From positions 6,045,501 to 6,109,500 of the forward strand of contig NC_061795.1 of the NCBI RefSeq assembly GCF_021462225.1: DNA of 64,000 nt, in the 5' to 3' direction. A program made the translations under genes and the position numbers. Shown here piece after piece: positions 5,922 to 61,214 of this stretch (position 1 is the first letter of the stretch; every line of letters begins with the position of its first letter). Origin of the DNA: Girardinichthys multiradiatus (lineage: Eukaryota > Chordata > Actinopteri > Cyprinodontiformes > Goodeidae). The notes below the pieces were generated by a model that made no database searches, had not been told where the DNA came from, and worked only from the letters and a program-made list of their open reading frames with translations.

Positions 5922-6327
5922 GTAAGAATTATTAGTTATATTTAATAAATTAGAAGATTATTGAAAAGTTCATTTGGTTTAGTAACTGAATTTTTTTGTA
6001 ATTAAAATAAGTGAAACAGATGCTACAGATTGATTACACACAGACTGATGTTTTCCAGTCTTTGTTTCTGTTAATTATGATGATTTTCGATACCAGTTAC
6101 AGAAGCTATAAGACCAATGTGGTAATGAGGGCTTAATAAATAGTATGTTTAATACCTCCGTAAAGGTTGTTATTTTGAAAAGGTGCTTTTTGATCTGACA
6201 AAAGAGCCTCATCGGAACACATAACCTATTTTACTGGAAATTATTATACAATTTTAAATTAAAATTGATGTTGCACAAAAAACTGCACTAAAAACTGTTA
6301 GTATACCAGTAGTAATATATATATATA
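5922..6327. other. Intron start and AT microsatellite target of the Maverick
   Basis: Ordinary AT-rich intron with no gene. It ends in a short (AT)n run at about 6313-6327, whose last six bases TATATA (6322-6327) are the left copy of the Maverick target duplication. Confidence 0.6.
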
Positions 6328-6560
6328 AGAGAATTTAAGTACACCCTTTCATCAAACTTTTTGACAGGTGGGTGGGACTTCCGGTGAGGGCGGGATTTCC
6401 GGTGGGGGCCATATGGGCGCCATGTGGTTGCCACGTGGGCAGGAGGTCACGTGGTCAAGCAGGTGGTGTGTCCAAGGGGGGCGTAACAGTGGATGCTGAT
6501 TGGTTGTCGTCATTAGGGGCAATACCTTAAATGAGTCAATTAAAACACAGGGGTGTGTTT
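6328..6560 (+). repeat. Left terminal inverted repeat of the Maverick
   Basis: This is the inverted counterpart of 22356-22568 with scattered substitutions. An extra block of about 20 bases near 6445-6470 (around GGTCACGTGGTCAAGC) is missing from the right copy. It is GC-rich in an AT-rich element and contains two TTCCGGT motifs (6377-6385 ACTTCCGGT and 6395-6403 ATTTCCGGT), the palindromes CCATATGG and GGCGCC, and CACGTG. The inner boundary is where GTGTGTTT stops matching. Confidence 0.9.
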
Positions 6561-6693
6561 GTTATAAATAGAACAAGACAAATATGGTATTATCGGAAAC
6601 TGTTTGGCATCAGCACCAATTAAAAATAGAGGGGGTGTGTTTGTAAGCATCGTTAAACCTTGAATAACCCAATGAAAACAATAGGGCGTGCCT
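6537..6693 (+). repeat. Iteron-like triple repeat beside the left terminus
   Basis: Three related copies of CAATtAAAA-n-AGGGgTGTGTTT occur at 6537-6560, 6617-6642 and 6669-6693. The third is the most diverged (GGGCGTGCCT). The first belongs to the terminal repeat; the other two are internal. Related copies lie at the right end. Spacing and AT-rich flanks resemble origin or promoter iterons; function is inferred only. Confidence 0.5.
6563..6570 (+). promoter_or_regulatory. TATA box TATAAATA for the left-end gene
   Basis: TATAAATA lies just inside the left terminal repeat, about 100 bases before an in-frame ATG at 6672 and about 210 before the preferred ATG at 6777. A second TATA-like TTTAAATA lies at about 6704. 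Which start is used cannot be settled from sequence alone. Confidence 0.5.
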
Positions 6694-6776
6694 TAGTGTT
6701 TACTTTAAATACAGAGATAAAACTCTGCACTTTACATGCAGCCTTCGTTGGAAAAAAAAAGAACACCCGTTCAACA

Positions 6777-7730
6777 ATGGCTAGAGTTAAGAGAGTTTAT
6801 CGTCAAGCGGAGGAGAAACGCAACGCGTGCCAAGATGATGATGATGAACAAGCAACTGCATCATATACTTCCTCAACGGAGATACCTATCGGAATTCCCG
6901 TCGTGACATACTCTACCGATGATGAGGATCCAAAATCAACTTCAACAACCATGGTTGAAAATCAGACCTCGGTTCGGCCAAGAGGTATGTCAGTTCTGTG
7001 CGAAACCCCAGTGACCGTCTACCAGTATTCATCCCGTGAATTGAATGCTCCTAAGAAATCAACATACTACATCTGCAGGGTACAAAGACCCCCGTTCAAG
7101 ACTCTGCAGGAAGAATGGTCTTTGGAGCCATATGGCCTGGTTGGCAGCTGGGGTTATATTTTCATGTATGAAATAGGAGAGCTTTGCCTGTATCAATTGG
7201 ATCAAGACGAGGTATTTAATGGATCACTGGCTCTGTGTACACTCACCCACAGCGACTGGGCTGTGTTAAAGCTTGCAATCCCGCACCTTAATGATAGCCC
7301 TGAAAAAGTCTCAAGGCAGGAGAGGGAGAAAGAAGAAGAAGAAGAAAATGAACTGTCTCCTCGACCTGTAAAACGGGCGAGAATGTTTCATATACCATCC
7401 GATGTTGAAATAGCTGAGAGAGAACCTCTCTTTAGCGCAGTGTGGGGGTCAAAAACCACAGCAAATGGCCGCTGGTCTTTTCGGGCAAGCAGACGCAGGA
7501 ACAACCGGACGAGTCCCTCAGATCTGTTTGTGTTGGAGGCTTTCAATCAGGACTGCGGCGTATTCAAGACAATGCTGGCTCTGCCGTTTGAAGCTTGGGC
7601 AGAGAAGATGAGTGAAATTGGACATCGTCTTTCCGACCTTTTCCAAAAGTCACGAAGTTGGATCGATGTCATGTCAGTGAAAAAAACGCTGACGTTTCCT
7701 GTTTTACGTTTAGAACGAACCCTCTTCTGA
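6777..7730 (+). CDS. Maverick left-end protein of unknown function (317 aa)
   Basis: Not recognised as a known family. From ATG at 6777 (ACAATGG context) the product begins MARVKRVYRQAEEKR. An acidic, Ser/Thr-rich N-terminal third (DDDDEQ run) follows, then a more globular middle with LYQLDQDEVF and SDWAVLKLAI, an acidic run (EKEEEEEN), a basic cluster RPVKRAR that looks like a nuclear localisation signal, and a C-terminal part with RASRRRNNR. The frame stays open upstream to about 6660, so an earlier ATG at 6672 is possible. It sits where Mavericks and adintoviruses carry variable accessory genes, so a nuclear early-type role is plausible but unproven. Confidence 0.75.
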   Translation: MARVKRVYRQAEEKRNACQDDDDEQATASYTSSTEIPIGIPVVTYSTDDEDPKSTSTTMVENQTSVRPRGMSVLCETPVTVYQYSSRELNAPKKSTYYICRVQRPPFKTLQEEWSLEPYGLVGSWGYIFMYEIGELCLYQLDQDEVFNGSLALCTLTHSDWAVLKLAIPHLNDSPEKVSRQEREKEEEEENELSPRPVKRARMFHIPSDVEIAEREPLFSAVWGSKTTANGRWSFRASRRRNNRTSPSDLFVLEAFNQDCGVFKTMLALPFEAWAEKMSEIGHRLSDLFQKSRSWIDVMSVKKTLTFPVLRLERTLF

Positions 7731-7747
7731 GGACACGCCCCTTCCTA

Positions 7748-7758
7748 TGATATATATA
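7748..7758 (+). promoter_or_regulatory. TATA-like box before second left-end gene
   Basis: TATGATATATATAC lies 18 bases after the stop of the preceding gene and about 45 bases before the ATG at 7801. That spacing suits an independent promoter with a short leader, and is the reason for choosing 7801 rather than the ATG at 7747, which overlaps the box. Confidence 0.5.
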
Positions 7759-7800
7759 CGGGGGGATAACTGCAAGCTCACAGACACTGAGAATCGTATC

Positions 7801-8640
7801 ATGAGAATGAGTGGACCGACACCATACAGGGATCTCTACAACCACCGAGCAGAGATCCACTTCTCTCCTGAGCACGATGAAAGCTTCAACATTGGACCAT
7901 ATCATCCGCCTTCCCCTGACCTCTTCTCACCATCCACCTCAACATCCTCATTCTCAGAGAACCACTACAGTCCTGCATCACCTACAGGATACAACATGAA
8001 ATATCTACCGCTTTCTCCAGACCTCTGCTCACCATCACCGCTATTCATGGCTGAGTCTGTAGACGCGAATGTCCTGCCTGAAGACATGAAGGTGGTCGTG
8101 GAGGAGGAGGTAGCCACCGGCTACTCACCCTCTACCGAAGCCCCTACACAAACCCTGGAACCGATGGAGGACCCTCAGCCTTCAGCAGAGGATGAGAGTA
8201 ACCAGGAGGACGAAATTGACGGTTGGTTCTCAACCACCCTCATCAATACGGTGAAAACAGCGATACTTCATTTATTCAACATAACCTCTTTGAACTATCT
8301 CAGAGAAACCTGCTATGGATGTATAACGAACCACCCAAGCCAGCGTCAACACCATTGCCTGGAGGTACTGGGGGAGGATTATTACCAAGTCAACTTTCAA
8401 CGCATCGTACGACGACTCGTAACCCCCAAACTCATTCCTGCTATTCAGAATCTTCTGGTACTTCGAAGCATACAAGCGGATGACTTCAGAGTGAAGACGA
8501 TTGCCAAGACGGTTTTATATGAACTGAAATCGGTACAAGGCATCCACAGTGCAATAGTGCACGTTTATGATCGCATGGTCGATGAGAAACATCTCAAACA
8601 ACTTAACTCTGTTTCAGAGTGCTATGGACTGACAAACTGA
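7801..8640 (+). CDS. Maverick left-end protein with C-x2-C/H-P-S-Q/H-C box (279 aa)
   Basis: No family name can be given with confidence. The N-terminal half is Pro/Ser/Thr-rich and acidic, with three SPDL-type repeats (PPSPDLFSPS, LSPDLCSPSP), like an activation or disordered region. After a hinge around NQEDEIDGWF comes a folded C-terminal domain with C171, C174, H178 in NHPSQ, H184/H185 and C186, a likely zinc-binding cluster, followed by predicted helices (VNFQRIVRRLVTP, IQADDFRVKTIAKTVL). A similar CxxC...HPSQ...HxC pattern seems familiar from fish virus-like elements, but that is from memory and unverified. Position next to the preceding unknown suggests an early or regulatory role. Confidence 0.75.
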   Translation: MRMSGPTPYRDLYNHRAEIHFSPEHDESFNIGPYHPPSPDLFSPSTSTSSFSENHYSPASPTGYNMKYLPLSPDLCSPSPLFMAESVDANVLPEDMKVVVEEEVATGYSPSTEAPTQTLEPMEDPQPSAEDESNQEDEIDGWFSTTLINTVKTAILHLFNITSLNYLRETCYGCITNHPSQRQHHCLEVLGEDYYQVNFQRIVRRLVTPKLIPAIQNLLVLRSIQADDFRVKTIAKTVLYELKSVQGIHSAIVHVYDRMVDEKHLKQLNSVSECYGLTN

Positions 8641-8957
8641 TCTCACATGTTTGATGACTTGTTGTTGTATCATTTTTTTTTTTAGTATTCCAGTACTTTA
8701 GTTAATCTGCATTATATGATTTTTCTTCTTTTTTCTTTTTTACTATTAAATACAATTAAAGTAGGAACATAGTAACCTTTCCCAAAAAGTGTTGTTTAAA
8801 AAAGCTAGTAGTGTTTGAATTCATCTGCATTTTATCTGATTTTGTTTTCTGGTTGTTTTTTGTTTATATTAAATAAAAAAAAAAAAATAAAAAAAAATAA
8901 GGATAAATCTACCCTCCTGTGTGTTTTTTCTCATTATTTAACAAGTAATCGGCAGAG
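8641..8957. other. AT-rich intergenic region before the integrase
   Basis: No gene. There are T-rich and A-rich homopolymer runs (poly-T near 8675, AAATAAAAAAAAAATAAA near 8873). Several AATAAA-like signals could end the preceding transcript. No clear TATA box stands out from the general AT-richness. Confidence 0.5.
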
Positions 8958-10046
8958 ATGGCAGGAAGACGGCTGATGAAGAAAGTATATTATAGCCCTT
9001 CAAATCCGGGAAGTTTTGGGGGTGTAGATAGGCTGAGGAGGGTTATGCAAGATGAAACGGGAAAGAAGGTTGCGGTTGAAAAAGTTAAAGATTTTTTATC
9101 AGGAGAAGATACCTATACTCTACATAAACCTGCAAGAATAAAGTTCCCGAGAAACAGAGTTTTTGTCACCAGACCATTGAGGCAGTTCCAGGCCGATCTC
9201 TGTGACATGCAAGCTCTGGCCATGGAAAATGATGGTTATAATTATTTATTAACAGTCATTGACATCTTTTCAAAAAGGGCGTATGTACGAGTTTTGAAGA
9301 GGAAAACAGCCGCTGAGGTGGTAAAGGCATTTGAATCAGTTTTTACAGAAAGTCAGATCCCCAAAAAACTTCAGACTGATGCCGGTAAAGAATTTTTTAA
9401 CAAGAAATTTAAAGTTTTAATGGAGAAACACGGTATTGAACATTTTGCCACAGCGAGTGAAGCAAAAGCTTCAGTGGTCGAGAGATTTAACCGCACATTA
9501 AAAACAAGGATGTGGAGATATTTTACAGCTAACAATACCCGGCGGTACGTCGATGTACTGCAAAACCTAGCTAGAAGCTACAACCATTCCTACCACTCCA
9601 GCATTAAAATGAGCCCTATGGAAGTGACCCCAGAAAATGCCTTTCAAGTGTTTCAGAATCTGTATGATGTCAAGTCCAACAGATATTGCAAGGACTCAGT
9701 GACAACGTTTAAACAAGGGGATCTTGTCACAATATCCAAGGTCCGTGGAGTGTTTGACAAAAAATACGAACAGAGTTTTACGGATGAAGTGTTTACAGTC
9801 TATGACCGGATACCCCGTTCTCCTCCTGTATACAAACTCAAAGATTTGGATGGAGAACCTATCGAGGGTTCCTTTTACGCTGAGGAACTTCAAAAAGTAA
9901 AAATATTTAACGACAAGATGTATCAAGTGGAAAAAATATTAAAACGACGTACGGTCAAGGGAGTCAAACAGGTTTTTGTAAGCTGGAAAAACTGGCCTGA
10001 GAAATTCAACAGTTGGATCAAGTTTGATGAACTTCGAAACGTATAA
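8958..10046 (+). CDS. Maverick integrase, retroviral-type DDE core plus chromodomain
   Basis: The 362-aa product is a Maverick integrase, which inserts the linear element into host DNA. The DDE core shows Asp80 in FQADLCDMQA, Asp141 in LQTDAGKEFF and Glu175 in SVVERFNRTLK, with near-retroviral Asp-Glu spacing. ERFNRTLK and NHSYHSSIKMSPMEV are typical of this integrase family. Residues from about 319 (YQVEKILKRR to FNSWIKFDEL) form a chromodomain, thought to guide targeting to modified histones. There is no obvious N-terminal HHCC zinc finger. The frame is complete, with all catalytic acids kept. It is followed within 40 bases by the penton-like gene. Confidence 0.95.
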   Translation: MAGRRLMKKVYYSPSNPGSFGGVDRLRRVMQDETGKKVAVEKVKDFLSGEDTYTLHKPARIKFPRNRVFVTRPLRQFQADLCDMQALAMENDGYNYLLTVIDIFSKRAYVRVLKRKTAAEVVKAFESVFTESQIPKKLQTDAGKEFFNKKFKVLMEKHGIEHFATASEAKASVVERFNRTLKTRMWRYFTANNTRRYVDVLQNLARSYNHSYHSSIKMSPMEVTPENAFQVFQNLYDVKSNRYCKDSVTTFKQGDLVTISKVRGVFDKKYEQSFTDEVFTVYDRIPRSPPVYKLKDLDGEPIEGSFYAEELQKVKIFNDKMYQVEKILKRRTVKGVKQVFVSWKNWPEKFNSWIKFDELRNV

Positions 10047-12721: not shown

Positions 12722-12732
12722 TCTAATCAGGC

Positions 12733-13275
12733 ATGAATAATCATGAAATTGAGAGCCTGATGCGTCATCTGCTGGGAGATTTGTTTTGCGGTGTGTGGCC
12801 GTGCGACCAGCTGCCGCTGCTAGCTGACAAATTCCCAGGGCCGGCCTACTTTATCGTGAATACACATCCTTCACACATGCCGGGGGAACACTGGCTAGCT
12901 CTGACATTGGATGAGAATGGTCAATCCAGCTTTTTTGACTCTTATGGATTCTCTCCGGATTTCGAGTTCTACCCGTCAAGCATCGTAACATTTTTAGAAG
13001 ACAGATCCTCAAAAATATTGTATCATAATAATCAGCTTCAAAACACTCTGTCCACTGTGTGCGGTCACCATTGCATTTTTTATCTATGTCATAGAGCGTG
13101 CGGATTATCAATGCAGCAAGTGTTGTCGAAATACACCGGAGATGTGATTAAGAATGATTTAATGGTATCTAACTTTGTGAAAAAATATCAGAAATGTGTC
13201 ATTAATCAAAGTTGTACATTTTATACTCACGGAACATGCTCTTTGGAGATGTTTCTGGATTGTTATGGAATTTAA
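12733..13275 (+). CDS. Adenain-type cysteine protease (180 aa)
   Basis: Adenovirus-type maturation protease (C5 family) that would process capsid precursors. The catalytic set is visible: His53 in GEHWLALTLD, Asp69 in SFFDSYG (adenovirus has Glu), Gln103 in NNQLQNTL, and Cys110 in STVCGHHCIFYLCH. The Gln-to-Cys spacing of seven equals that of adenain. Length (180 aa) is slightly shorter than the adenovirus enzyme. It is the last + strand gene, followed by T-rich sequence and a polyadenylation region near 13400. All key residues are present, so it could be active. Confidence 0.92.
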   Translation: MNNHEIESLMRHLLGDLFCGVWPCDQLPLLADKFPGPAYFIVNTHPSHMPGEHWLALTLDENGQSSFFDSYGFSPDFEFYPSSIVTFLEDRSSKILYHNNQLQNTLSTVCGHHCIFYLCHRACGLSMQQVLSKYTGDVIKNDLMVSNFVKKYQKCVINQSCTFYTHGTCSLEMFLDCYGI

Positions 13276-14636: not shown

Positions 14637-15308
14637 TTACTTTGTTCTGGGTACGTACACAGCAGGCCACTGCTGAGGAAGTATCCCCGTTCTCAGTCTG
14701 AAATGTTCTGGGCAGGTAGGCGTAAAATCGATGATTAAATATCCATGAGCTTCTCTCGTTGCGTCTTCAAAACTCTCCAAGAAGAGACCCTTTTGAGATG
14801 GAAACATTTGGCGGGCCAGTATATTCAGCTGGAGTTTATCTCTCGGGTTCTTAAACAACACCATATAATTACAGTTCAAACTAATAGTGCGACTGAACTT
14901 TCCCTGATGAAATACATTCTGAGTCAACATCATAACACTCATATTACGATGGTGACGAAACTGGGTAAAGACTTTCATCACGTTTTCATCATCTGAGGCT
15001 TGAGCAATAACATCGTCTAGAATGATCAAATGATTCTGATCAGGAGGAAACAGGTTTTCATCTTCAAAAGAATGAGGCAATCCTTCCACAAAGGTAATAT
15101 TTTTATTCATCTTCTGCAATTCAGCATACATGGGTTGAAAAGATGTGTAAATCCATACAATATTTTCTGGAACAATATCCATGACATGATTACAGTTTTG
15201 TAAAATACTTTTTACAAAGAAAGTTTTCCCGCAGCCGCTGGGTCCAACTATCATACATGAGAAAGGGACTCTAAATCTAGGATCAAAATCAATCTCCTGT
15301 AAATCCAT
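14637..15308 (-). CDS. FtsK/HerA-type genome-packaging ATPase (223 aa)
   Basis: P-loop ATPase that would pump the element genome into capsids. Walker A is GPSGCGKT at residues 22-29 (within MIVGPSGCGKTFFVKSIL) and Walker B is LIILDD at about 94-99 (NHLIILDDVIAQ). A following MMLTQNVFHQGKF has the sensor-like Gln/Asn typical of the A32/Maverick packaging family. Length suits the family. It lies 30 bases after the polymerase stop, and its ATG follows a T-rich stretch. All motifs are intact. Confidence 0.93.
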   Translation of the reverse strand: MDLQEIDFDPRFRVPFSCMIVGPSGCGKTFFVKSILQNCNHVMDIVPENIVWIYTSFQPMYAELQKMNKNITFVEGLPHSFEDENLFPPDQNHLIILDDVIAQASDDENVMKVFTQFRHHRNMSVMMLTQNVFHQGKFSRTISLNCNYMVLFKNPRDKLQLNILARQMFPSQKGLFLESFEDATREAHGYLIIDFTPTCPEHFRLRTGILPQQWPAVYVPRTK

Positions 15309-15338
15309 GTGACTTTTTATTTTATTTCTTCTTCAACT

Positions 15339-18300
15339 CTAATAACCGAAAGGCAGAGTTGTCCCGTCAGAAAAAAGACGTCTCTTATCATACACCAGTC
15401 GAAACTTTTTAAGAAATGTCGCGTTTGTCAAACGGAATCTCTTTTTATCCCTCCTGATCGTGTGCTGAGGGATTTCAATGACACCCTCACTTGACCCCTG
15501 TAAGTAGCCCTCGACCAGCCCTTTGATGCTGTCAAAATTGACCCTCTCGCTGCATTCATGCGTCTGAGTGATGCCTTTAGCACGTATCATTACATTTTTA
15601 CGGTTTTTGGTCTGGTATGCATAACTCTTGGGTCCTGTCGATGCAAACTCCGAAATGCTGTCACCATCTAACTCGTCAGTAAGATCACCCAGATAATTCC
15701 CCAATTCCAGAGGAGTTTCACCACTTTTTGTCACATAAATCAAACTGTCCGTGTCAATATAAATCAATCTGTCCTGTAACTTCTCCATGCTGCTGAGAAG
15801 TTTTAAACGTGCATAAGCGGTGGTGAATGCTGCTATAAACACATTATTTGTCTTACTTGGTGGATATATGACACGTTTATTGAAATTCCACTGCACTACA
15901 CACATTTCAGGGTTGAAAAAATGAAAATAGTTAACCCTGTATTTACTCGAGAACATGAAGCTGAAAAAGTCTTCAGGGTTAGTGATGACTGTGGTCTGAG
16001 ACAGATCGCTTCTTTGCGCAAATTTCCCCCAAAAACTGTTTAAACACAATTTTGCAACCTGCCTTTTGGCAGGATTCATCTCGATTTTCTCAGGGTCTAA
16101 TTGGATGCCCTGATGCAGTTTGTAGTCGCTTATATACTTTGACTTACTCTCCTGATCCACTGCTTCAGATGGATAGCCTGAAGCCTCCTGCTTACCCTTT
16201 AAAAAGCAATGAATGTAACCTTTAAAGATTGTATCACTTCTCTTTTCAAAATGCCACACCTCTGTGATTTTAGCAAGACGATAACCACACTGCAACGCTT
16301 TACAAAACTCTACAGTCACCCACACACCCGTCAGAGCTCTGTCTTCATCATTATGCATGCAGGGACCTGACTGGTAATTTAATTCAGCGCATGAGCGGCA
16401 GAGAGTGAACACAAGTTTACCTTGGGATGTTCTGTAAGGTAAAACAGGGAACAACAGGTTACGTGGTGGGTAGACCACAGCTTTGATTATACCGAAGTAG
16501 CTGCTGGGGTCATCAAAATCTTTGTAAATGATGGTGGGGTGTCCGAGGGGAAAAACGCAGTTGGCGTTTACATAAGGGTACAGAGATGTGTAATCCACAT
16601 AGTGTACAGTTTCATCCGGTTCCGCTGTGTACCTCAACTTCATAGGACAGGTGCGTCCACCATACAGCGCATCCCGGGGGGATAGCGGTTCGGGTGCATT
16701 AACTTTCTCAAGAAAGCTGATCACCCCTGGGTCTGATTTTTTCATTTCAATCCACTCATGCTCCCATATGACTTCGAGACGAAGGCCGTACACAGTTTGT
16801 AACACCTTGCTTCTCTCAACAGTGGCTGCGTAAAACTGTTCAAATGCGACCCCTCTCAACGGACACTTGTCATGAGGCATGTAACACTTTTTACAGCCGT
16901 GGAAAAAACAGCCATAAAATTCAAACGCAACTTTGACACCGTTAATCTCTGCATACCCATCCACTGAATATGGCCCGATTTTCTTTTCACCCCTATTTAA
17001 TGCATGCTCGATAAATATGGCTCTGCTGTCTGCAATCCAGCCGAGCCATTGAATGGACGCGCTGGAGAACGTTTTACTGCTACGTCTGTAGTCCAGAGGT
17101 GATGGAATGGCTAAGGTTTGAGGAGGAAGGAAATTGGTTACAAAAACCTTCATGCAGGCTGATGCTATTGTGATACTTTTAAACGGATCCACACTTGTCT
17201 CCTTAAAGAACTCGTCTCTGAATTTTAAGCATCCTTGAAAAAGAATTTCAACGTCATTTTTACAATAACGAATTGCTTCTTTCTTAAAGTCAAAGACCTC
17301 TTTGCTCGCTTCTCTGTACCAGCTGCTAAACACCTGTTGTTCTTGAAGACTCATGCGTTCTACAGCGTAGCAGGATGGAGGAGGAAAAGCCCCTACATAC
17401 TGGAGATGTTGTTCAGAGGAAAATAGGTGGGGGAAAAAACCCTTGCTTTGATCGGTAAAGCCTAACGCTTTCGGCATGGCACTAAGCTTCATGCACATGA
17501 AGGACAGGCTATCAATGTATTTTAACCTGTAATCAGGGTCGGTTAAACAGAGAACTTTACTCCCTACCATGACGATATGTGGTTTAATGCCTAACTGCAG
17601 CATTGCTGTGAGAATCAGGTAACCATCGTACCCCCGCGCATTGTGCGCTATTAAGGTGTAACCTTTGTACATTGGCCTCCTGAAATGCAGGAGAAATTTT
17701 TGGGTGCAATTCAGTCCATAAGCGTACCATTCATCACCTTTCAACGTTTTAGCACAGACCAGAAAGGGGGTATGCACGCCGCTCTCATTGACGAGGCATT
17801 CGAAATCATAAAAAATCAGTTTATCATCAAGCTGATTAATTGCACTGCAAGGCAGAATGTAACATTTATGATCATCGCATGTAACGTCTAGGCTGGGGGG
17901 TACATTTTCACCGCAAATACTGCATTTTACATTACACACGTGTGGTTTTTTCGGTTTACTGATTGGAATAACGTATATCCGTTTGCATACTTTACACAGT
18001 TTTACCAACTCACAGTCACTGATAGGCCTTTCAGCACTATTTCTGATGCGCGGTTCCCTGTGTCTGCTGAAACATGAAGAATTACGACAGATTCTTTGAC
18101 AGCCTGCACAGCTTACAGGATTGCTAATCTCTTGCATACATTTATATGTTCGACACACTGGACAATAACCTTCACAATGGTGTGTATTGGCATTCTGATA
18201 GCTGGCGTAACAGTAATTACAAATATATCTGCACCCCATAAAACCTTTGAGATTTTTTATCCCATAGTAATGACCTTGAAATAACAGCAAAAACAGAGGG

Positions 18301-19601
18301 TTTGAACGATCGGGGAAACTGGTCTCAAATTTACACAGAGCAGTAGAGCCCGTGGTTCTGTGAAACACTACAATTTTTCTCTTCAGAATGGTTTCAAATT
18401 TACCAATATCACTAAAAGTAACTGCTGTTTGCTCGTCAAGGCCTGCCTGATGGTGCCATCTCCTCCCCAGTTCTACAGCACGGTGATCCGTGAGCTCAGG
18501 ATCAGAGACGTGTGCGAGGCTGATTGCAAAACATAACTGATTACCGGTATTGTTTATAATATACAAATGACGCATTTTCTTATTAAACAGTTCACAGTCT
18601 AACGTTCCTGCAGCTTTACGCTTAGAACCTCCTGCTGGGTCATTAACAACCTGAAGAACAAATTCCATGTTATTATCTACAGGTATATTTGCATTCGATT
18701 GTACTAAATCGTCGAGGAAGTTTTCGAAAGCAGGCAGGATCATATTTCCATCATCTGTAACAGTAAATGTGATGTGACGATTGAGATTTTCACCCACTAA
18801 TTCCAGCTGCACAACGTCGTTACGTCTGGTTAACGATCTCGCAGCGTCGGCTAATTCAATTATAATACGCATGATGTCTGTATAGAATGCTGCTAAATCT
18901 GGAACGTCACTTGGACAGGGCGGCGGTATGGTAAAAGGTCTCCTTATTTCATGGTTATTAAAATGTTCACGTTCAACCACAGCTGGAGGATCTCGCTCTA
19001 TTTGATCAGAACTAACCGCTACTCCCGTATTGAAATTACCCCCGTGATGATCTGCGGAGTGTGACGTAGAAGGATTCTGATGAGTGTCAGGTGAATCATT
19101 TTCCTCAATGCTGCTGTGTGGAGACGGTTCGCTGTTCAAATCGGAAAGAGCCTGATTGATTACGTTTAAAACGTCACCGTGCCGATCTGCGGCGTGTGCA
19201 GGTGAATCATTTTCCTCAATGCTGCTGTGTGGAGACGGTTCGCTGTTCAAATCGGAAAGAGCCTGATTGATTACGTTTAAAACGTCACCGTGCTGATGTT
19301 CATTTATTAAATTTTCACTGTTAGCAGGAGATGCATTAACGGGGATTTCGTTAAGTTCATTAACTAAATTTCTTATTTCATCCAGGGCAAGTCTGATTAC
19401 TTGATCAGAACTAACCGCTACTCCCGTATTGAAATGACCCCCGTGATGATCTGCGGAGTGTGACGTAGAGGGGTTATGATAATTTTGCTCAATGCTGTGT
19501 GGAGACGGTGTGCTATTTTCTTCTGCATTAACGGGAATTTCGTTAAGTTCATTAACTAAATTTCTTATTTCATCCAGGGCAAGTCTGATTCGGTTATCCA
19601 T
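15339..19601 (-). CDS. Protein-primed family B DNA polymerase with long repeat-bearing N-terminus (1420 aa)
   Basis: The replicase of the element. The exonuclease domain starts near residue 598 with FYDFECLV and later LIAHNARGYDGYLI. Polymerase motif A is DYTSLYPYVN (about 1001), motif B KLCLNSFWGKFA (about 1182) and motif C YIDTDSLIY (about 1281), so all catalytic acids are present. Residues about 455-590 form a cysteine-rich region (CNYCYASYQ, CPVCRTYKC, CAGCQRIC, CSICGEN), probably zinc-binding. Around 900-960 VKVAFEFYGCFFHGCKKC and LEVIWEHEW resemble the nuclease-like insertion of Maverick polymerases. The first 215 residues hold duplicated acidic modules. A splice-acceptor-like TTATGTTCATAG abuts the ATG at 19601. 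The frame is fully open. Confidence 0.95.
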   Translation of the reverse strand: MDNRIRLALDEIRNLVNELNEIPVNAEENSTPSPHSIEQNYHNPSTSHSADHHGGHFNTGVAVSSDQVIRLALDEIRNLVNELNEIPVNASPANSENLINEHQHGDVLNVINQALSDLNSEPSPHSSIEENDSPAHAADRHGDVLNVINQALSDLNSEPSPHSSIEENDSPDTHQNPSTSHSADHHGGNFNTGVAVSSDQIERDPPAVVEREHFNNHEIRRPFTIPPPCPSDVPDLAAFYTDIMRIIIELADAARSLTRRNDVVQLELVGENLNRHITFTVTDDGNMILPAFENFLDDLVQSNANIPVDNNMEFVLQVVNDPAGGSKRKAAGTLDCELFNKKMRHLYIINNTGNQLCFAISLAHVSDPELTDHRAVELGRRWHHQAGLDEQTAVTFSDIGKFETILKRKIVVFHRTTGSTALCKFETSFPDRSNPLFLLLFQGHYYGIKNLKGFMGCRYICNYCYASYQNANTHHCEGYCPVCRTYKCMQEISNPVSCAGCQRICRNSSCFSRHREPRIRNSAERPISDCELVKLCKVCKRIYVIPISKPKKPHVCNVKCSICGENVPPSLDVTCDDHKCYILPCSAINQLDDKLIFYDFECLVNESGVHTPFLVCAKTLKGDEWYAYGLNCTQKFLLHFRRPMYKGYTLIAHNARGYDGYLILTAMLQLGIKPHIVMVGSKVLCLTDPDYRLKYIDSLSFMCMKLSAMPKALGFTDQSKGFFPHLFSSEQHLQYVGAFPPPSCYAVERMSLQEQQVFSSWYREASKEVFDFKKEAIRYCKNDVEILFQGCLKFRDEFFKETSVDPFKSITIASACMKVFVTNFLPPQTLAIPSPLDYRRSSKTFSSASIQWLGWIADSRAIFIEHALNRGEKKIGPYSVDGYAEINGVKVAFEFYGCFFHGCKKCYMPHDKCPLRGVAFEQFYAATVERSKVLQTVYGLRLEVIWEHEWIEMKKSDPGVISFLEKVNAPEPLSPRDALYGGRTCPMKLRYTAEPDETVHYVDYTSLYPYVNANCVFPLGHPTIIYKDFDDPSSYFGIIKAVVYPPRNLLFPVLPYRTSQGKLVFTLCRSCAELNYQSGPCMHNDEDRALTGVWVTVEFCKALQCGYRLAKITEVWHFEKRSDTIFKGYIHCFLKGKQEASGYPSEAVDQESKSKYISDYKLHQGIQLDPEKIEMNPAKRQVAKLCLNSFWGKFAQRSDLSQTTVITNPEDFFSFMFSSKYRVNYFHFFNPEMCVVQWNFNKRVIYPPSKTNNVFIAAFTTAYARLKLLSSMEKLQDRLIYIDTDSLIYVTKSGETPLELGNYLGDLTDELDGDSISEFASTGPKSYAYQTKNRKNVMIRAKGITQTHECSERVNFDSIKGLVEGYLQGSSEGVIEIPQHTIRRDKKRFRLTNATFLKKFRLVYDKRRLFSDGTTLPFGY
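19003..19591 (-). repeat. Three interleaved duplications in the polymerase N-terminal coding region
   Basis: Near-identical DNA pairs are visible. The pair at 19088-19183 and 19199-19294 encodes DVLNVINQALSDLNSEPSPH, 111 bases apart. The pair at about 19003-19075 and 19401-19473 encodes STSHSADHHGG-FNTGVAVS. The pair at about 19335-19399 and 19527-19591 encodes IRLALDEIRNLVNELNEIPV. All keep the reading frame. Confidence 0.9.
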
Positions 19602-19604
19602 TTT

Positions 19605-19645
19605 CTATGAACATAAGAAACGAAAATAAAAAAAAAACTAACCTA
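19605..19645 (-). promoter_or_regulatory. Possible splice acceptor directly before the polymerase start
   Basis: On the minus strand a T-rich tract followed by CTTATGTTCATAG ends three bases before the polymerase ATG (AG at 19606-19605, then AAA-ATG). The polymerase mRNA could therefore carry a spliced leader from an upstream donor. Confidence 0.35.
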
Positions 19646-19691
19646 CAGAAAAAAAAACAAACAAAAAAAAAAAAAAAACACAGTGATCAGT

Positions 19692-19950
19692 TCAGTTTAA
19701 AATCACCTTGATGTCACCAAAATGCTTCTTTAACAGAATCTGACATGCAGCCAGAAGCGTTAACGATGAGGTCTTATTACGAAGATTCCGTGAGGCTGTA
19801 GAGACTGTCTTCCTGCGCTGTCTGTTTCTGTGACCAATCTGTCCTACCATCAACGTAACCTCTGTAAGGAGAATGAACAAAAAATAAATAAATAGATAAT
19901 AAATATATATATATATATATATATATATTGAAATAATCACATTAAAGCTG

Positions 19951-19987
<37 letters not shown>

Positions 19988-20848
19988 GAATTAAAATTAA
20001 TTCAGTATGTATGTATGAATTAAAACGTACCGTTCATTAAACCACTCACTAGCGTTGCTCGGGTTTGTAGCGCAAAGAGTCGCTGTCTTTTGGCCGGGGT
20101 TAAATATTCTGTAAAAACAGAAGACAATAAAAAGTTATCTTACGCTGCGCAGCACAGCGTTCATAAATAAAACGAAAATAGTTTTTAAAATACACAAGTT
20201 TTTTTTTAATCTTACTCCGATTCTTTGCGGTAAAACCTCCAGATTTCACTTCTTGTTGGACTGAAACTGTGCCGTTCTGCTGAAAGCTGTCTTGATCTTT
20301 GAAAAGCGACCTTCTGGTGGGCGGATTTAATGTGGCATCTTTGGATGTATCTGTAAACAGGTTTATATGACATTTTTATTGAACTATGCTTAAAATACAT
20401 ATATATATATATATATATTGTTTTTATTTAATTTTTATTTCCTTACCTTGCTCCTGCTCGACAACTATGTCTTCCACAGAGCTCTCAGTCGAATCTGTAA
20501 AAAGTTTTATCTGAGGTTTAAAACAAAAGTCTCTAATAACACATAAATAAAATACATTCACTCTCAAAGAAAAACAGTTAGTTCTTAGGACTTACTTTCT
20601 GGAGGTGCCGGTAACTTATCCGGTGTGTCTTCAGGGGAAATGATGATAATTGGCGGAGGAGTATTCAAAGAATCTGTCGTAATTTCTGTGTTAGAAGAAA
20701 GTTCAGATGTAGTTGGGAGTTTTTCTTGTTTGGAGATAATTCGCCTTCTTAATTTGGAGTGTCGATTCCAGCAGCTGAACCCTCCAACTTGATCATTCGG
20801 GTTTACCTCTCTCATCAAATCTATAAATTGAAACATTGTCAAGGATTA

Positions 20849-20893
<45 letters not shown>

Positions 20894-20978
20894 ATTGCAT
20901 TTAACATTTACTTACCATAATCTGATTGTGTCAAGATGAAATCATCAAGGTCATCAGCGGTGGGTTCTATGACAAAGA

Positions 20979-21021
<43 letters not shown>

Positions 21022-21167
21022 AATATATATAAACAAAATTTGAGAACATTCACATGCATTTAATGATACTTACTTACTTACTTACGTTTTAAGATGTCAT
21101 TGTGCTTTTGTGAATTATCAGAAGAAGAAGCCACAATTTCCGGGTTTCCTGAAATATTTACCGACAT
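19692..21167 (-). CDS. Seven-exon spliced Maverick gene, unknown function (262 aa)
   Basis: No single frame covers this gene. Minus-strand exons are 21167-21086, 20966-20916, 20820-20596, 20494-20447, 20350-20216, 20108-20031 and 19861-19692. Every intron (about 95-169 bases) begins GTAAG, GTAAGG or GTACGT and ends AG. Every junction is phase 1, and the joined frame has no internal stop. The product begins MSVNISGNPEIVASSSDN and is acidic in exon 2 (ADDLDDF). Exon 3 has CWNRHSKLRRRIISKQEK and a Pro-rich acidic tail. It becomes basic near the end (TPAKRQRL in exon 6, HRNRQRRK in exon 7). It is possibly a nuclear DNA-binding or regulatory protein, but no family was recognised. A TATA box lies 124 bases upstream, and the polymerase gene starts 90 bases downstream on the same strand. 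Confidence 0.85.
20852..21017. repeat. AT microsatellites inside introns of the spliced gene
   Basis: (AT)n runs at about 20852-20890 and 20984-21017 lie in introns 2 and 1 of the seven-exon gene. Similar runs at 20399-20419 (intron 4) and 19903-19928 plus a poly-A run near 19952 (intron 6) also fall in introns. Exons are free of them. Confidence 0.8.
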
Positions 21168-21290: not shown

Positions 21291-21298
21291 TATTTATA
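21291..21298 (-). promoter_or_regulatory. TATA box for the spliced minus-strand gene
   Basis: TATAAATA on the minus strand (21298 to 21291), followed 124 bases later by the ATG at 21167. The sequence is identical to the left-end TATA at 6563-6570. Confidence 0.6.
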
Positions 21299-21332: not shown

Positions 21333-21964
21333 CTATGTTTTTAAGACCAAAACCCTTCTTGAGTTCAAAGGTGATATGTTATCTAAGAAACAGACGTAAC
21401 TGCCCCTTCCTGACATCGCCCCTAACAGTTGGGATATAGAATAACTGTAACCCTGTAACTCTAAGATGAAAAAGTAAAATGTTTTAGAAAAGCTACAGGT
21501 AACTAAAATTATCATTCCTTTTTCCTAAAATGGAGTCTCTCATGATTCAAAAACAAACACATCATTGCTAGTCAATTTGTAACTTGGAAACAGTATACTG
21601 ATGTTCTTTTTTTTTCTGTTAATCTGATATTCGTCTTACCTATTTCAGCTGCCTATGTTTTTAAGACCAAAACCCTTCTTGAGTTCAAAGGTGATATGTT
21701 ATCTAAGAAACAGACGTAACTGCCCCTTTCCTGACATTGCCCCTAACAGTTGTAACCCCCTGTAACTCTAAGATGAAAAAGTAAAAATGTTTTTTAGAAA
21801 AGCTACAGGTAACTTAAATTATCATTCCTTTTTCCTAAAATGGAGTCTCTCATGATTCAAAAACAAACACATCATTGCTAGTCAATTTGTAACTTGGAAA
21901 CAGTATACTGATGTTCTTTTTTTTTTCTGTTAATCTGATATTCGTCTTACCTATTTTCAGCTGC
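21333..21964. repeat. Tandem duplication with 320-base period upstream of the spliced gene
   Basis: Copy one (21333-21652) and copy two (21653-21964) are nearly identical. Differences are small homopolymer changes and a deletion of about 15 bases in copy two (the GGGATATAGAATAAC stretch). Both copies contain, on the minus strand, CAGCTGAAA-TAG followed by GTAAGACG, a good splice donor (exon ends 21640 and 21951). The block may be a duplicated leader exon or promoter for the minus-strand genes. Confidence 0.8.
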
Positions 21965-22289: not shown

Positions 22290-22402
22290 AACACCCTTAA
22301 ACACACCCCTGTGTGTTTTAATTGGCTCATTTAAGGCCTTCCCCGTAACACCCTTAAACACACCCCTGTGTTTTAATTGACTCATTTAAGGTATCGCCCC
22401 TA
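22290..22402 (-). repeat. Subterminal tandem repeat at the right end
   Basis: Two consecutive units starting AACACCCTTAAACACACCCC lie at 22290-22346 and 22347-22402, each followed by TTTTAATTG-CTCATTTAAGG. The outer unit overlaps the right terminal inverted repeat. They are the right-end counterpart of the iteron-like copies near 6537-6693. Confidence 0.75.
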
Positions 22403-22568
22403 ATGACGACAACCAATCAACATCCACTGTTACGCCCCTTGGACACACCCCCCCTGCCCACATGGCAACCACATGGCGCCCATATGCCCCCCACCGGAAG
22501 TCCCGCCCTCACCGGAAGTCCCGCCCACCTGTCAAAATGTTTGATGGAAGGGTGCACTTAAATTCTCT
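22356..22568 (-). repeat. Right terminal inverted repeat of the Maverick
   Basis: Inverted match to 6328-6560. It ends ACTTAAATTCTCT directly before TATATA (22569-22574). It keeps two ACCGGAAGT motifs (22493-22501 and 22511-22519) but lacks the extra CACGTG-containing block of the left copy. Confidence 0.9.
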
Positions 22569-22576
22569 TATATATA

Positions 22577-23821
22577 CAGGGGTTGGACAATGAAACTGAA
22601 ACACCTGGTTTTAGACTACAATAATTTATTAGTATGGTGTAGGGCCTCCTTTTGCAGCCAGTACAGCGTCAATTCGTCTTGGGAATGACATATACAAGTC
22701 CTGCACAGTGGTCAGAGGGATTTTAAGCCATTCTTCTTGCAGGATAGTGGCCAGGTCACTACGTGATACTGGTGGAGGAAAACGTTTCCTGACTCGCTCC
22801 TCCAAAACACCCCAAAGTGGCTGAATAATATTTAGATCTGGTGACTGTGCAGGCCATGGGAGATGTTCAACTTCACTTTCATGTTCATCAAACCAATCTT
22901 TCACCAGTCTTGCTGTGTGTATTGGTGCATTGTCATCCTGATACACGGCACCGCCTTCAGGATAAAATGTTTGAAACATTGGATGCACATGGTTCTCAAG
23001 AATGGTTCGGTAGTCCTTGGCAGTGATGCGACCATCTAGTATTGGGCCAAGGGAATGCCATGATATGGCAGCTCAAACCATCACTGATTCACCCCCATGC
23101 TTCACTCTGGGCATGCAACAGTCTGGGTGGTACGCTTCCTTGGGGCTTCTCCACACCGTAACTCTCCCGGATGTGGGGAAAACAGTAAAGGTGGACTCAT
23201 CAGAGAACAATACATGTTTCACATTGTCCACAGCCCAAGATTTGCACTCCTTGCACCATTGAAACCAAAGGTTTCCAAAGGTTTGGCTATAGCAGCCCGG
23301 CCGTGTATATTGACCCTGTGGAGCTCCCGACGGACAGTTCTGGTGGAAACAGGAGAGTTGAGGTGCACATTTAATTCTGCCGTGATTTGGGCAGCCGTGG
23401 TTTTATGTTTTTTGGATACAATCCGGGTTAGCGCCTGAACATCCCTTTCAGACAGCTTCCTCTTGCGTCCACAGTTAATCCTGTTGGATGTGGTTCATCC
23501 TTCTTGGTGGTATGCTGACATTACCCTGGATACCGTGGCTCTTGATACATCACAAAGACTTGCTGTCTTGGTCACAGATGCGCCAGCAAGACGTGCACCA
23601 ACAATTTGTCCTCTTTTGAACTCTGGTATGTCACCCATAATGTGTGCATTTCAATATTTTGAGCAAAACTGTGCTCTTACCCTGCTAATTGAACCTTCAC
23701 ACTCTGCTCTTACTGGTGCAATGTGCAATCAATGAAGACTGGCTACCAGGCTGGTCCAATTTAGCCATGAAACCTCCCACACTAAAATGACAGGTGTTTC
23801 AGTTTCATTGTGCAACCCCTG
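22577..23821 (-). mobile_element. Tc1-like transposon abutting the Maverick end
   Basis: Ends are CAGGGGTTGGACAATGAAAC and the inverted GTTTCATTGTGCAACCCCTG, flanked by TA (22575-22576, 23822-23823). The minus-strand transposase is broken. The C-terminal part at 22629-22988 keeps YQDDNAPIHTA (second Asp) and SPDLNIIQPLW, where the usual catalytic Glu is replaced by Gln. N-terminal parts are scattered over other frames to about 23640. Only two bases separate it from the Maverick target duplication. Same family as 53744-55012. Confidence 0.9.
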
Positions 23822-23823
23822 TA

Positions 23824-45153: not shown

Positions 45154-46401
45154 TGCATCTTACAGTCTACTTGGCTGTTACTTTCCTTGGTTTTTGACAT
45201 TTTCCACTAAAACAACCAACTTGTCCCTCTGGATATTGTTGGACCTTCTTTTAATTCATTTGGTAAAGATGAGTAATTTCCATGTTTTTCAAATCTTTAA
45301 ATGGAATCTGGTTGTGACTTTCTTCTCCATCTTTTCTGGACAGGACATGCAATAGCCCCTTGATTTGACAGTGTTTTATTTGGGGCTGTACAGTGGGCTT
45401 TTCCCTGTTTCAGTTCTATGTCATGCTTCTGTGCTGTTTCTCTATATCAGGGCAAATTTTCAGTGGGATTTCTCAGGAGACTGTTGATGTCAAAGTGATG
45501 CAGCGTTTAAATTCTTCTTTTGCGACATTCACAAATAGAAGATGCCTCGGAATACTGGGAGTATTTTATGGTGAAAGTCGAAGTTTAGACATTAATCTCA
45601 GCTAAGTTGTGCGGATAATCTAAGTGGAGCAAAATGTCCACAGACCAAAACTAAGATGATGGAGATGTGCATTAAGAACATCTAAACAGAGAAATTTTAG
45701 ACATGGTAAGCATGCCAGTGGTTGACCCATACAAGTTTTTTATTGTCTGGTGCTGACTGTGGATCAGTGGTTCCCAGCCTTTTTTCTAGTGATTTGTTTC
45801 TGTGAACCAGTACTGTCATACAGGATTCTGCTGCAGAGTTTTATACCATCAGTTTTACGACCTCAGCAATTGCAACATGCAAGTTGTTCTGTGGTTACGT
45901 CTGGTTATGAAGGATTTGCGTTCTGCTTGTTCTGATTGTTGTAGTTGTGCATTGTAGGAGCATTATTTTCTTCACTGCAAGGAGAGCAACATTGACTTTA
46001 GCACTTCACAACCAGTGATAATGACTTCTCAGCTCCTTAGAGCCATAACTAGTGGTAGACTAGATTTTGTCATAATCATGTCTGAACCTGTCTATTGCAT
46101 AGCTTGACATAATGGTCCAAATGTGTTTGCATTTATAGATCTCATATAAATTACATTAATGAAATCTGTCCAAATTAGTTGTTCCTATGCTTTAATTACC
46201 ATCAGTACCATCATTTTGCTATATTGTAAGAGCAAAGCTGCACAAGCTAAAAGTAACAGCTGTTACCATTGGCTAGTCTTTTGGACTAAAACTGATGTGG
46301 TGGGTTACACAGTGGAGGTACCAAGAGAAACGGGGTCGAGACTTTATTGAAGGGAGCTGGTGATGCACCGAGACATTCATTCCACTGCCTGATGAAAATT
46401 T

Positions 46402-46403
<2 letters not shown>
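45154..46403. other. 3' flank of the phosphatase-like gene
   Basis: Probably 3' UTR and downstream sequence. No further exon with splice signals or recognisable domain was seen. Confidence 0.45.

Positions 46404-46468
<65 letters not shown>
46404..46468. repeat. GT microsatellite
   Basis: An almost uninterrupted (GT)n run of about 65 bases, preceded by TTTAACGTG. Polymorphic in length in most fish; no coding role. Confidence 0.95.
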
Positions 46469-46469
<1 letters not shown>

Positions 46470-46628
46470 CTAGCATTTGTTACAGTGTAAGGCCCATGTT
46501 CCCCAACATGTACTACGTTGTGAGGACCCACTACTCCTAATAGGGCCCCCCCTTCATAAAGTCTTGTCCTGCTTTATGAAGATGCTAACTTTAACCTGGA
46601 CTTGTTGCTCCCTCGACCTGATCTCTGA

Positions 46629-47740
46629 TAATATGGATGGATGGATGGATGGATAGAGGGGTAGATGGATGGATGGTGGGGTAGATGGATGGGTGGGTGG
46701 ATGGATGGAGGGGTAGATGGATGGATGGAGGGGTAGATGGATGGGTGGATGGATGGATGGTGGGGTAGATGGATGGATGGAGGGGTAGATGGATGGATGG
46801 AGGGGTAGATGGATGGATGGATGGGTAGATGGATGGGTAGATGGATGGATGGTGGGGTAGATGGATGGGTGGAGGGGTAGATGGATGGGTGGAGGGGTAG
46901 ATGGATGGTGGGGTAGATGGATGGATGGTGGGGTAGATGGATGGGTGGGTGGATGGATGGAGGTGTAGATGGATGGGTGGATGGATGGATGGTGGGGTAG
47001 ATGGATGGGTGGATGGATGGATGGATGGTGGGGTAGATGGATGGGTGGGTGGATGGATGGAAGGGTAGATGGATGGGTGGATGGATGGATGGGTGGAGGG
47101 GTAGATGGATGGTGGGGTAGATGGATGGATGGTGGGGTAGATGGATGGGTGGGTGGATGGATGGTGGGGTAGATGGATGGGTGGGTGGATGGATGGAGGT
47201 GTAGATGGATGGGTGGATGGATGGATGGGTGGAGGGTAGATGGATGGTGGGGTAGATGGATGGATGGTGGGGTAGATGGATGGGTGGGTGGATGGACGGT
47301 GGGGTAGATGGATGGGTGGGTGGATGGATGGAGGTGTAGATGGATGGGTGGATGGATGGATGGTGGGGTAGATGGATGGGTGGAGGGGTAGATGGATGGA
47401 TGGATGGTGGGGTAGATGGATGGGTGGATGGATGGATGGATGGTGGGGTAGATGGATGGGTGGGTGGATGGATGGAAGGGTAGATGGATGGGTGGATGGA
47501 TGGATGGTGGGGTAGATGGATGGATGGAGGGGTAGATGGATGGATGGAGGGGTAGATGGATGGATGGTTGGTGGGGTAGATGGATGGGTGGAGGGGTAGA
47601 TGGATGGGTAGATGGATGGATGGTGGGGTAGATGGATGGGTGGAGGGGTAGATGGATGGGTAGATGGATGGATGGTGGGGTAGATGGATGGGTGGAGGGG
47701 TAAATGGATGGGTGGGTGGATGGATGGATGGATGGAACAT
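46629..47740. repeat. 1.1-kb GATG-type satellite with higher-order units
   Basis: An array of GGAT/ATGG tetranucleotides broken by regular variants (GGGGTAGATGGATGG, GGGTGGATGG, GGAGGGGTAGATGG), giving recurring compound units of roughly 20-50 bases. Because the unit lacks stops, long frames of His/Pro/Ser repeats on the minus strand (46554-47903) and Gly/Trp/Met repeats on + are open. They are artefacts of the repeat. Confidence 0.95.
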
Positions 47741-61000: not shown

Positions 61001-61214
61001 ACCAGTTATTGTTTTCCTGTATAGATGGCTCAGAGGACATTCTAAATCTGAGAACTAATGATATCGCATTATTAAGCCACATGTCTAAGCTAAATTTTGG
61101 GATGTTTTGCTGTTTCAGGATAAGGAACTTTGGGACATTGGTGATTGGCGCAAAAACATTGAGGACAAATCAGGAATGGATGGGAGAAAGAAGATGTTTG
61201 AGGCTGAAGCGTGA
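52059..61214 (+). CDS. tnni2: Troponin I, fast skeletal type (complete, 178 aa)
   Basis: Six coding exons join without error: 52059-52066, 52159-52195, 52308-52436, 57943-58032, 59587-59763 and 61119-61214 (TGA at 61212-61214), each with GT/AG borders. The exon holding the ATG starts after a TTCATACAG acceptor at about 52032, so a non-coding first exon lies upstream. The protein is the inhibitory subunit of the troponin complex on the thin filament of striated muscle. MSEKKLSSCRKHHLKSLIL is the N-terminal troponin C-binding helix. RYMAESCPPL and the IT-arm helix ELCREIHHKIDVIDEERYN follow. FKKPVLRKVRMSADAML is the inhibitory and switch region, and GDWRKNIEDKSGM is the C-terminal actin-binding part. 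Length matches fast isoforms without the cardiac N-terminal extension. Intron 3 (52437-57942) is filled with transposons. Confidence 0.95.
53272..55430 (-). mobile_element. LINE fragment split by a Tc1 insertion
   Basis: The minus-strand RT C-terminal part reads NNHLILNVNKTKEMIVNKR then VEEYKYLDVHLDKRLEWRC (54952-55424) and resumes beyond the Tc1 as FLRKLRSFGVCSKMLHIF and SAIICWGSSI (53342-53737). The break falls in the conserved QSRLYFLRKL segment, so the two halves were contiguous. The 3' end lies near 53272 with an ATTCAA-rich tail. The copy is 5'-truncated, lying in intron 3 of troponin I. Confidence 0.8.
53744..55012 (+). mobile_element. Tc1-like transposon nested in the LINE
   Basis: Ends CAGGGGTTGGACAATGAAAC and TTTCATTGTCCAACCCCTG are flanked by TA (53742-53743 and 55013-55014). 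The 1269-bp element carries a + strand transposase in two main frames: 53929-54138 (HTH; MGDISEFKRGQIVGARL and VSRATVSRVMSAYH) and 54145-54777 (FPDDSTFTVFPTSG, HGGGSVMVWAAISW, YQDDNAPVHTA). A frameshift near 54140 and a TAG at 54775 before the acidic region's end disable it. The same family is at 22577. Confidence 0.9.
55863..57456. repeat. Non-coding dispersed element with hairpin-like ends
   Basis: It opens AAAGCTGCAAGCAGC and closes GCAGCGCTTCGCTGCGCC, both self-complementary. Internally, blocks recur in the two halves: GACCAACTTAGACCATCATG at about 56460 and 57005, and TCTCTGCAACTTTC-TTGTAGGAGCTATAACA at about 56600 and 57195. No transposase is encoded; short frames are incidental. It is probably a non-autonomous element, sitting in troponin intron 3. 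Confidence 0.55.
58033..59586. other. Troponin I intron 4
   Basis: AT-rich intron between the 57943 and 59587 exons. No embedded gene or recognisable transposon. Confidence 0.6.
59764..61118. other. Troponin I intron 5
   Basis: Intron containing one common dispersed repeat at 60553-60650 (GGCAAGGCGAGTTTATTTGT; CAAAGTGCTTTACATGATG). No gene. Confidence 0.55.

What the first reader, a model, noticed from the sequence alone, without database searches (positions are those of the whole stretch)
19692..21167. A seven-exon, six-intron gene inside a Maverick element
Virus-like Maverick genes are usually single open frames. Here seven short minus-strand exons, each with good GT/AG borders, join into one 262-codon frame with no stop, behind a TATAAATA box. 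Each exon alone is too short or ordinary to be noticed. The product has acidic N-terminal and basic C-terminal parts and matches no family I know. A spliced gene next to the polymerase suggests a nuclear, temporally controlled function such as a regulator or replication cofactor.
Basis: partly seen in the sequence, partly recalled or inferred. Interest (0 to 1): 0.9.

Follow-up and report, generated by a model that had tools for sequence, protein, structure and literature searches.

The report
Seven-exon spliced gene in fish Maverick
Next to the DNA polymerase gene of a virus-like mobile element (a Maverick) in a genome that is likely a fish's, there is a gene cut into seven exons whose pieces recur in the same order in predicted proteins of goodeid fishes; it is predicted to be spliced into one message and likely makes a nuclear regulatory protein, although a survey of intact vertebrate Mavericks reported seeing no introns.

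Summary
Seven minus-strand exons (21167-19692) with six GT-AG introns, all phase 1, give 262 codons just upstream of polB in a Maverick. A simple gene finder recovered exons 1-6 exactly, scoring 71.4 against at most 24.1 in 500 shuffles, but did not pick exon 7. Exon 3 searched alone, then a profile, found 37 relatives, all gene models of eight goodeid fish genera. They keep the exon order; each of the six junctions is spanned by 2 to 18 models; 12 of 14 that reach the C-terminus end DIKxxxN like the window. I read it as a separate accessory gene, not the start of the polymerase and not the terminal protein. Its kin are predicted mostly unstructured with two long C-terminal helices. Conserved islands look like a cyclin-docking RxLF, two CDK sites and a SUMO-interacting motif. 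Best guess: a nuclear early regulator of the E1A style; that role is inferred. Some models skip exon 3 or 6, which the common phase allows in frame. No transcript and no DNA of relatives was seen; the own-genome search did not complete (16 tries).

The parts
21086..21167 (-). Exon 1 with ATG
   Evidence: similar N-termini in P0128 and P0157; P0126 appears to read it in another frame
20916..20966 (-). Exon 2, acidic
   Evidence: 6 of 37 relatives match
20596..20820 (-). Exon 3, with IIIISPEDTPDK (SUMO-interacting-like motif and CDK-type site)
   Evidence: 10 of 37 relatives match
20447..20494 (-). Exon 4, acidic
   Evidence: no direct match by itself; position between exons 3 and 5 in relatives read
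20216..20350 (-). Exon 5, with RRSLF (cyclin-docking-like RxLF)
   Evidence: 22 of 37 relatives match
20031..20108 (-). Exon 6, with YLTPAKRQRL (CDK-type site, basic cluster) and first long helix
   Evidence: 22 of 37 relatives match; helix
19692..19861 (-). Exon 7, basic stretch, second long helix, ends VILN and stop
   Evidence: 19 of 37 relatives match; C-terminus
21291..21298 (-). TATAAATA box 124 nt before the ATG
   Evidence: role not tested
15339..19604 (-). polB ORF, stop to stop; begins exactly behind the AG at 19605
   Evidence: (DNA_pol_B_2, E 9.7e-44)
19605..19706 (-). Possible alternative intron that would link exon 7 to polB in phase 0 (rival reading)
   Evidence: donor 4.3, acceptor 5.7 bits
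6308..6560 (+). Left terminal inverted repeat, begins AGTAGT
22356..22576 (-). Right terminal inverted repeat, outer tip cut off by a Tc1-like insert at 22577
8949..10046 (+). Integrase with chromodomain
12727..13275 (+). Adenain-type protease
14637..15332 (-). Packaging-type ATPase (best Pfam match Pox_A32)

Best explanation
It is a seven-exon accessory gene of a Maverick, lying just upstream of polB and with relatives in goodeid fishes, which is predicted to be spliced and whose product likely acts in the nucleus as an early regulator that would dock cyclin-CDK through an RxLF motif, be phosphorylated at two TPxK sites, bind SUMO through IIIISPE, and dimerise or bind DNA with its two basic C-terminal helices. 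Shown: the exon chain, its uniform phase 1, the related gene models, their junctions and the conserved islands. Predicted: splicing, lack of structure in the N-terminal part, the two helices. Inferred: nuclear site, partners, early timing. In-frame skipping of exon 3 or exon 6 would remove or add a motif block and so give isoforms with different partners; the cell would be brought into a state that favours replication by the element's own polymerase. The gene being real and spliced: about 0.92. The cell-cycle regulator role: about 0.35. The number below is for the whole statement.
For: Exon chain and phases and chance controls. 37 relatives at E 10 or better, 36 of them at 4.5e-8 or better, with exons in the same order, 52-100% identity per match. 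Junction patterns in 4, 2, 9, 12, 15 and 18 of 37 models for junctions 1 to 6, with the single split-codon residue at junctions 2, 4, 5 and 6 checked. 14 of 37 reach the C-terminus: 12 end DIKxxxN, 9 of them DIKVILN. One relative, P0126, is an NCBI model called isoform X2. Conserved islands in kin that carry the exon: IIIISPE 9-10 of 10 per residue, TPDK 9-10 of 10, RRSLF 18-20 of 20-21, T and K of TPAK 21 of 22 (P 16, A 17). Skipping: exon 2 to 4 in P0126, P0128, P0157, exon 5 to 7 in P0149, P0150. Long helices only in the exon 6-7 part of P0126 and P0139 (plus two short ones in P0126). Viral RxL docking to cyclin A2 is documented for HCMV pUL21a and pp150 (PMC4231158, passages); RXL and SPXK/full CDK sites go together in substrates (PMC6170502, passages).
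Against: No RNA and no DNA of relatives seen; the relatives are annotations, many partial; P0122 appears to keep intron 3 and P0126 appears to read exon 1 in another frame. Motif counts alone are weak: fraction of shuffles reaching them 0.056 (RxLF), 0.051 (TPxK), 0.005 (IIIISPE-type), and 0.61 and 0.38 for the broader cyclin and SUMO patterns. A diverged branch (P0142, P0152, P0153, P0155) lacks TPAK, and none of P0142, P0152, P0155 shows RRSLF. No LxCxE motif in the exon pieces or in any of the 37. Model confidence is modest: pLDDT 61 and pTM 0.34 for P0126, 77 and 0.49 for P0139. No relative outside Goodeidae was found, so it is no core function of Mavericks.
Confidence: 0.4

Rival explanations
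1. The seven exons are the 5' part of polB: a seventh intron 19706-19605 would link exon 7 in frame to the polymerase ORF, always or as one of two isoforms.
For: Exon 7 leaves phase 0 at a GT (19706, 4.3 bits) and the polB ORF opens exactly behind an AG at 19605 (acceptor 5.7 bits), also in phase 0. P0152 ends DIKECEL rather than DIKxxxN, as if spliced on after DIK.
Against: 12 of 14 relatives that reach the C-terminus read on from DIK to a four-residue end, and two of these (P0126 G, P0145 M) cannot have GT at that place. polB relatives begin with a similar start of their own, for example P0004. None of the 120 listed of 586 polB relatives matches an exon piece better than E 0.14; no goodeid is among the 120, so this is a weak test.
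Confidence: 0.1
2. A host gene with its introns was captured by the Maverick, or the relatives are a host gene family and not Maverick genes at all; its function would then be the host gene's.
For: Six vertebrate-type introns of one phase are unusual for a virus-like element; I could not see whether the goodeid models lie in Mavericks.
Against: No relative outside Goodeidae and no Pfam or PDB match, whereas a captured host gene should have host relatives in many fishes; up to 10 divergent models in one species (Goodea) suit a mobile element; only candidates sharing most words were scored.
Confidence: 0.2
3. It encodes the terminal protein that primes replication, since phage terminal protein genes lie next to their polymerase (recalled) and are of similar size (recalled).
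For: Position and size only.
Against: The terminal-protein domain of polinton polymerases is published as the N-terminal part of the polymerase (PMC11071308, abstract and passages), and a priming protein should be present wherever polB is, not only in goodeids.
Confidence: 0.03
4. The exon chain is a chance product of choosing splice sites in A+T-rich DNA.
For: Four of twelve sites are weak and settings of the gene finder change the chain; an 8-exon chain outside the element scored 58.8.
Against: 0 of 500 shuffles and 0 of 148 outside segments reach the score; 37 related gene models with the same exon order.
Confidence: 0.02

Closest known systems
Uncharacterized goodeid gene models such as GOODEAATRI_032141, XENOCAPTIV_022607 and Girardinichthys LOC124871093 isoform X2
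   Same: Homologous: exons in the same order, 52-100% identity per match, same C-terminus in most that reach it.
   Different: Named only hypothetical or uncharacterized; their link to Mavericks rests on this window alone; no function given.
Accessory genes of vertebrate Mavericks (PMC8097293)
   Same: Lies in the flanking accessory region beside the polymerase module, outside the published core set int, ppolb, atp, pm, pz, pro, Mcp, pw, mcp.
   Different: Six introns; the survey saw none in genes of intact elements. Its gene models were built from profiles of eight core genes (section 17), so spliced accessory genes could have been missed.
Spliced early regulators of small nuclear DNA viruses (adenovirus E1A, polyomavirus T antigens, papillomavirus E6/E7; recalled)
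   Same: Works-like comparison only: nuclear splicing, isoforms, disordered motif-rich part, presumed cell-cycle target.
   Different: No sequence relation found; no LxCxE motif; role not tested.
HCMV pUL21a and pp150 (viral RxL proteins binding cyclin A2)
   Same: RxL-type motif followed by a bulky hydrophobic residue (PMC4231158 passages).
   Different: Unrelated protein; pUL21a lacks full CDK sites and resembles an inhibitor, whereas this product has two TPxK sites and would resemble a substrate.

Membership tests
Maverick/Polinton (surrounding element) | rve integrase, with chromodomain | tested here: met
   PF00665 1.3e-11 and PF00385 1.5e-07 at 8949-10043
Maverick/Polinton (surrounding element) | Type B viral DNA polymerase | tested here: met
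   PF03175 9.7e-44; relatives include Larimichthys croaker adintovirus PolB
Maverick/Polinton (surrounding element) | Adenain protease and packaging ATPase | tested here: met
   PF00770 7.8e-06; PF04665 5e-08
Maverick/Polinton (surrounding element) | Capsid proteins | tested here: inconclusive
   ORFs in the right places, no Pfam or PHROG match; assigned by position only
Maverick/Polinton (surrounding element) | Terminal inverted repeats | tested here: met
   6320-6560 against 22356-22576, 90-94% complementary
Maverick/Polinton (surrounding element) | AGT/ACT end motifs and 6-bp target duplication | tested here: inconclusive
   AGTAGT at the left end 6308; right tip lost at a Tc1-like insert, no matching ACTACT found behind it
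Core genes of vertebrate Mavericks | Conserved, intronless ORF present across intact elements | tested here: not met
   Six introns; relatives only in Goodeidae
Terminal protein of protein-primed replication | Terminal-protein fold and priming residue | not tested
   Published as a domain of polinton polymerases
RxL cyclin-CDK substrates or inhibitors | RxL followed by a bulky hydrophobic residue | tested here: met
   RSLF in exon 5, 18 of 21 kin keep L and 20 of 20 keep F; one strict match, 0.06 expected in shuffles
RxL cyclin-CDK substrates or inhibitors | Binding to cyclin | not testable with these tools
   needs a binding assay
E1A/E7/T-type oncoproteins | LxCxE motif for Rb binding | tested here: not met
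   absent from the 7 exon pieces and the 37 relatives
Any Pfam family | Score above the curated cut-off | tested here: not met
   Best are below cut-off: YwqJ-deaminase 0.0098 (2 of 37), COE1_HLH 0.042 and bHLH_HIF1A 0.13 (1 of 37 each)

The most novel reading that the evidence does not exclude
A Maverick carries its own spliced early region: an intron-rich gene of phase-1 cassette exons that drops cyclin, CDK and SUMO motif blocks in and out by in-frame exon skipping, so that an element described as intronless steers its host's cell cycle in the manner of small nuclear DNA viruses.
Probability: 0.3. Interest if true: 0.85.

Novelty: new variant of a known kind. Interest (0 to 1): 0.62.

Why it matters
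Vertebrate Mavericks are described as intronless and their accessory genes are mostly unnamed. A gene with six introns and skippable exons would mean that at least one step of the life cycle needs the host spliceosome and a nuclear transcript, and it gives a testable handle on how these elements treat the host cell cycle. It also shows that ORF scans and core-gene profiles overlook Maverick genes. The literature searches listed no paper on a spliced Maverick or adintovirus gene as far as titles and abstract starts show; the adintovirus founding paper was not held.

Tried and rejected
Rejected with reasons under the rivals: 5' exons of polB, terminal protein, chance chain. Tried without result: viral contigs with polB alone (nothing) and with alignment A1 (6 distant loci at 22-29% identity, not read further); viral contigs with A4 (no stretch conserved enough); Pfam, PHROGs and PDB by sequence; similarity of exons to other parts of the window (best other match E 0.14); search for papers on goodeid Mavericks (10 listed of 193, none with the word Goodeidae); structure library search (never accepted). 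A tree of exon 7 with 15 relatives put the window copy among 8 rows (support 90/86) on the longest end branch, 0.25, with 1 of 13 inner branches strongly supported; the host species stays unproven. Exon 5 as an alignment row aligned wrongly and was left out of A3; exons 1, 2 and 4 were not rows either.

Full report
The element. Between inverted repeats at 6308-6560 and 22356-22576 lies a Maverick: integrase with chromodomain, adenain-type protease, packaging-type ATPase and type B DNA polymerase match Pfam, in two modules that face each other as published for vertebrate Mavericks (PMC8097293: abstract, passages, part 1 of the Discussion and the Gene Prediction section seen). The capsid genes are assigned by position only. 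The outer tip of the right repeat is cut by a Tc1-like insert that begins CAGGGG at a TA (22577); its match to an inverted copy at 53742-55014 spans 22575-23823. The left end begins AGTAGT; a target duplication could not be shown.

The gene. On the minus strand, upstream of polB, seven exons chain through six GT-AG introns. Every intron is in phase 1, so each of exons 2 to 6 could be skipped without loss of frame. The frame closes at 19692 with VILN and a stop, 262 codons. TATAAATA lies 124 nt before the start. A chain finder, trained on codons of the element's other genes and with splice matrices from memory, found exons 1 to 6 exactly: 71.4 against a mean of 8.4 and a maximum of 24.1 in 500 shuffles and a maximum of 62.7 in 148 segments outside the element. 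It did not choose exon 7; other settings gave other chains, and under strict cut-offs 3 of 98 outside segments reached the score.

Relatives. Exon 3 alone found two goodeid proteins. A profile of these two plus window exons 3, 6 and 7 as separate rows found 37 proteins with those two among them, all named from Goodeidae: Goodea 10, Xenoophorus 8, Ameca 5, Ataeniobius 5, Ilyodon 3, Xenotaenia 3, Characodon 2, Girardinichthys 1. Only the 7991 candidates sharing most words were scored, so distant relatives elsewhere may have been missed. The exons recur in order. By pattern, junctions 1 to 6 are spanned in 4, 2, 9, 12, 15 and 18 of 37 models. Of 14 that reach the C-terminus 12 end DIKxxxN, 9 of them DIKVILN; P0142 stops at DIKVI and P0152 ends DIKECEL. 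Three models go from exon 2 to exon 4, two from exon 5 to exon 7. Against: all are annotations, many partial; P0122 appears to keep intron 3, and P0126 appears to read exon 1 in another frame.

Product. Net charge runs from negative in exons 1-4 to positive in exons 5-7. Conserved islands stand out from variable stretches: LNTPxxIIIISPExTPDK in exon 3, RRSLFKDQD and VQQExKSG in exon 5, most of exon 6 and the second helix in exon 7. AlphaFold2 models of relatives P0126 and P0139 give long helices only in the part from exons 6 and 7, with modest confidence. No Pfam match passed its cut-off and no PDB match was better than E 2.9. RxL docking of viral proteins to cyclin A2 is documented (PMC4231158 and PMC6170502, passages); the reading of IIIISPE as SUMO-interacting and of KRQR as a nuclear signal is recalled. 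Motif counts alone are only weakly above chance; their conservation is the better argument. LxCxE is absent.

Which reading. A separate accessory gene is favoured over 5' exons of polB because most relatives read through the would-be donor to the same end and two of them cannot have GT there. The terminal-protein reading is disfavoured by PMC11071308 (passages). A captured host gene, or a host family, stays possible at about 0.2. A nuclear, early, motif-based regulator is the best single mechanism, at about 0.35; it is inferred.

Novelty. [quoted passage not shown] its models came from profiles of core genes, so accessory genes were not modelled that way. The searches listed no paper whose title or abstract start speaks of a spliced Maverick or adintovirus gene; in PMC8363768 the one 'splice' passage concerns host reads. 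Starrett et al. 2021 on adintoviruses was not held, so an earlier mention there is not excluded.

Noticed in passing
46539-47906: Long G-rich minisatellite with 8- and 12-nt spacing, GC skew 0.66 over 46001-48000, with long open frames overlapping on the minus strand.
   Followed up: no
18999-19590: Near-exact internal repeats (67-99 nt units) in the N-terminal coding part of the polB ORF.
   Followed up: no
21333-21925: Tandem duplication of about 310-320 nt, 99-100% identical in its parts, upstream of the spliced gene and reaching its promoter region.
   Followed up: no
22575-23823 and 53742-55014: Two Tc1/mariner-like copies in inverted orientation; one sits in the tip of the Maverick's right inverted repeat.
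   Followed up: partly
6657-7730 and 7714-8640: Two ORFs in the left accessory region without Pfam or PHROG match.
   Followed up: partly
P0017, P0025, P0026: Maverick polymerases of Sarotherodon galilaeus carry source names Nanog, olfactory receptor and histone H2B, which look like annotation errors.
   Followed up: no
59200-61092: An 8-exon chain on the plus strand scored 58.8 in the gene finder, perhaps a host gene.
   Followed up: no
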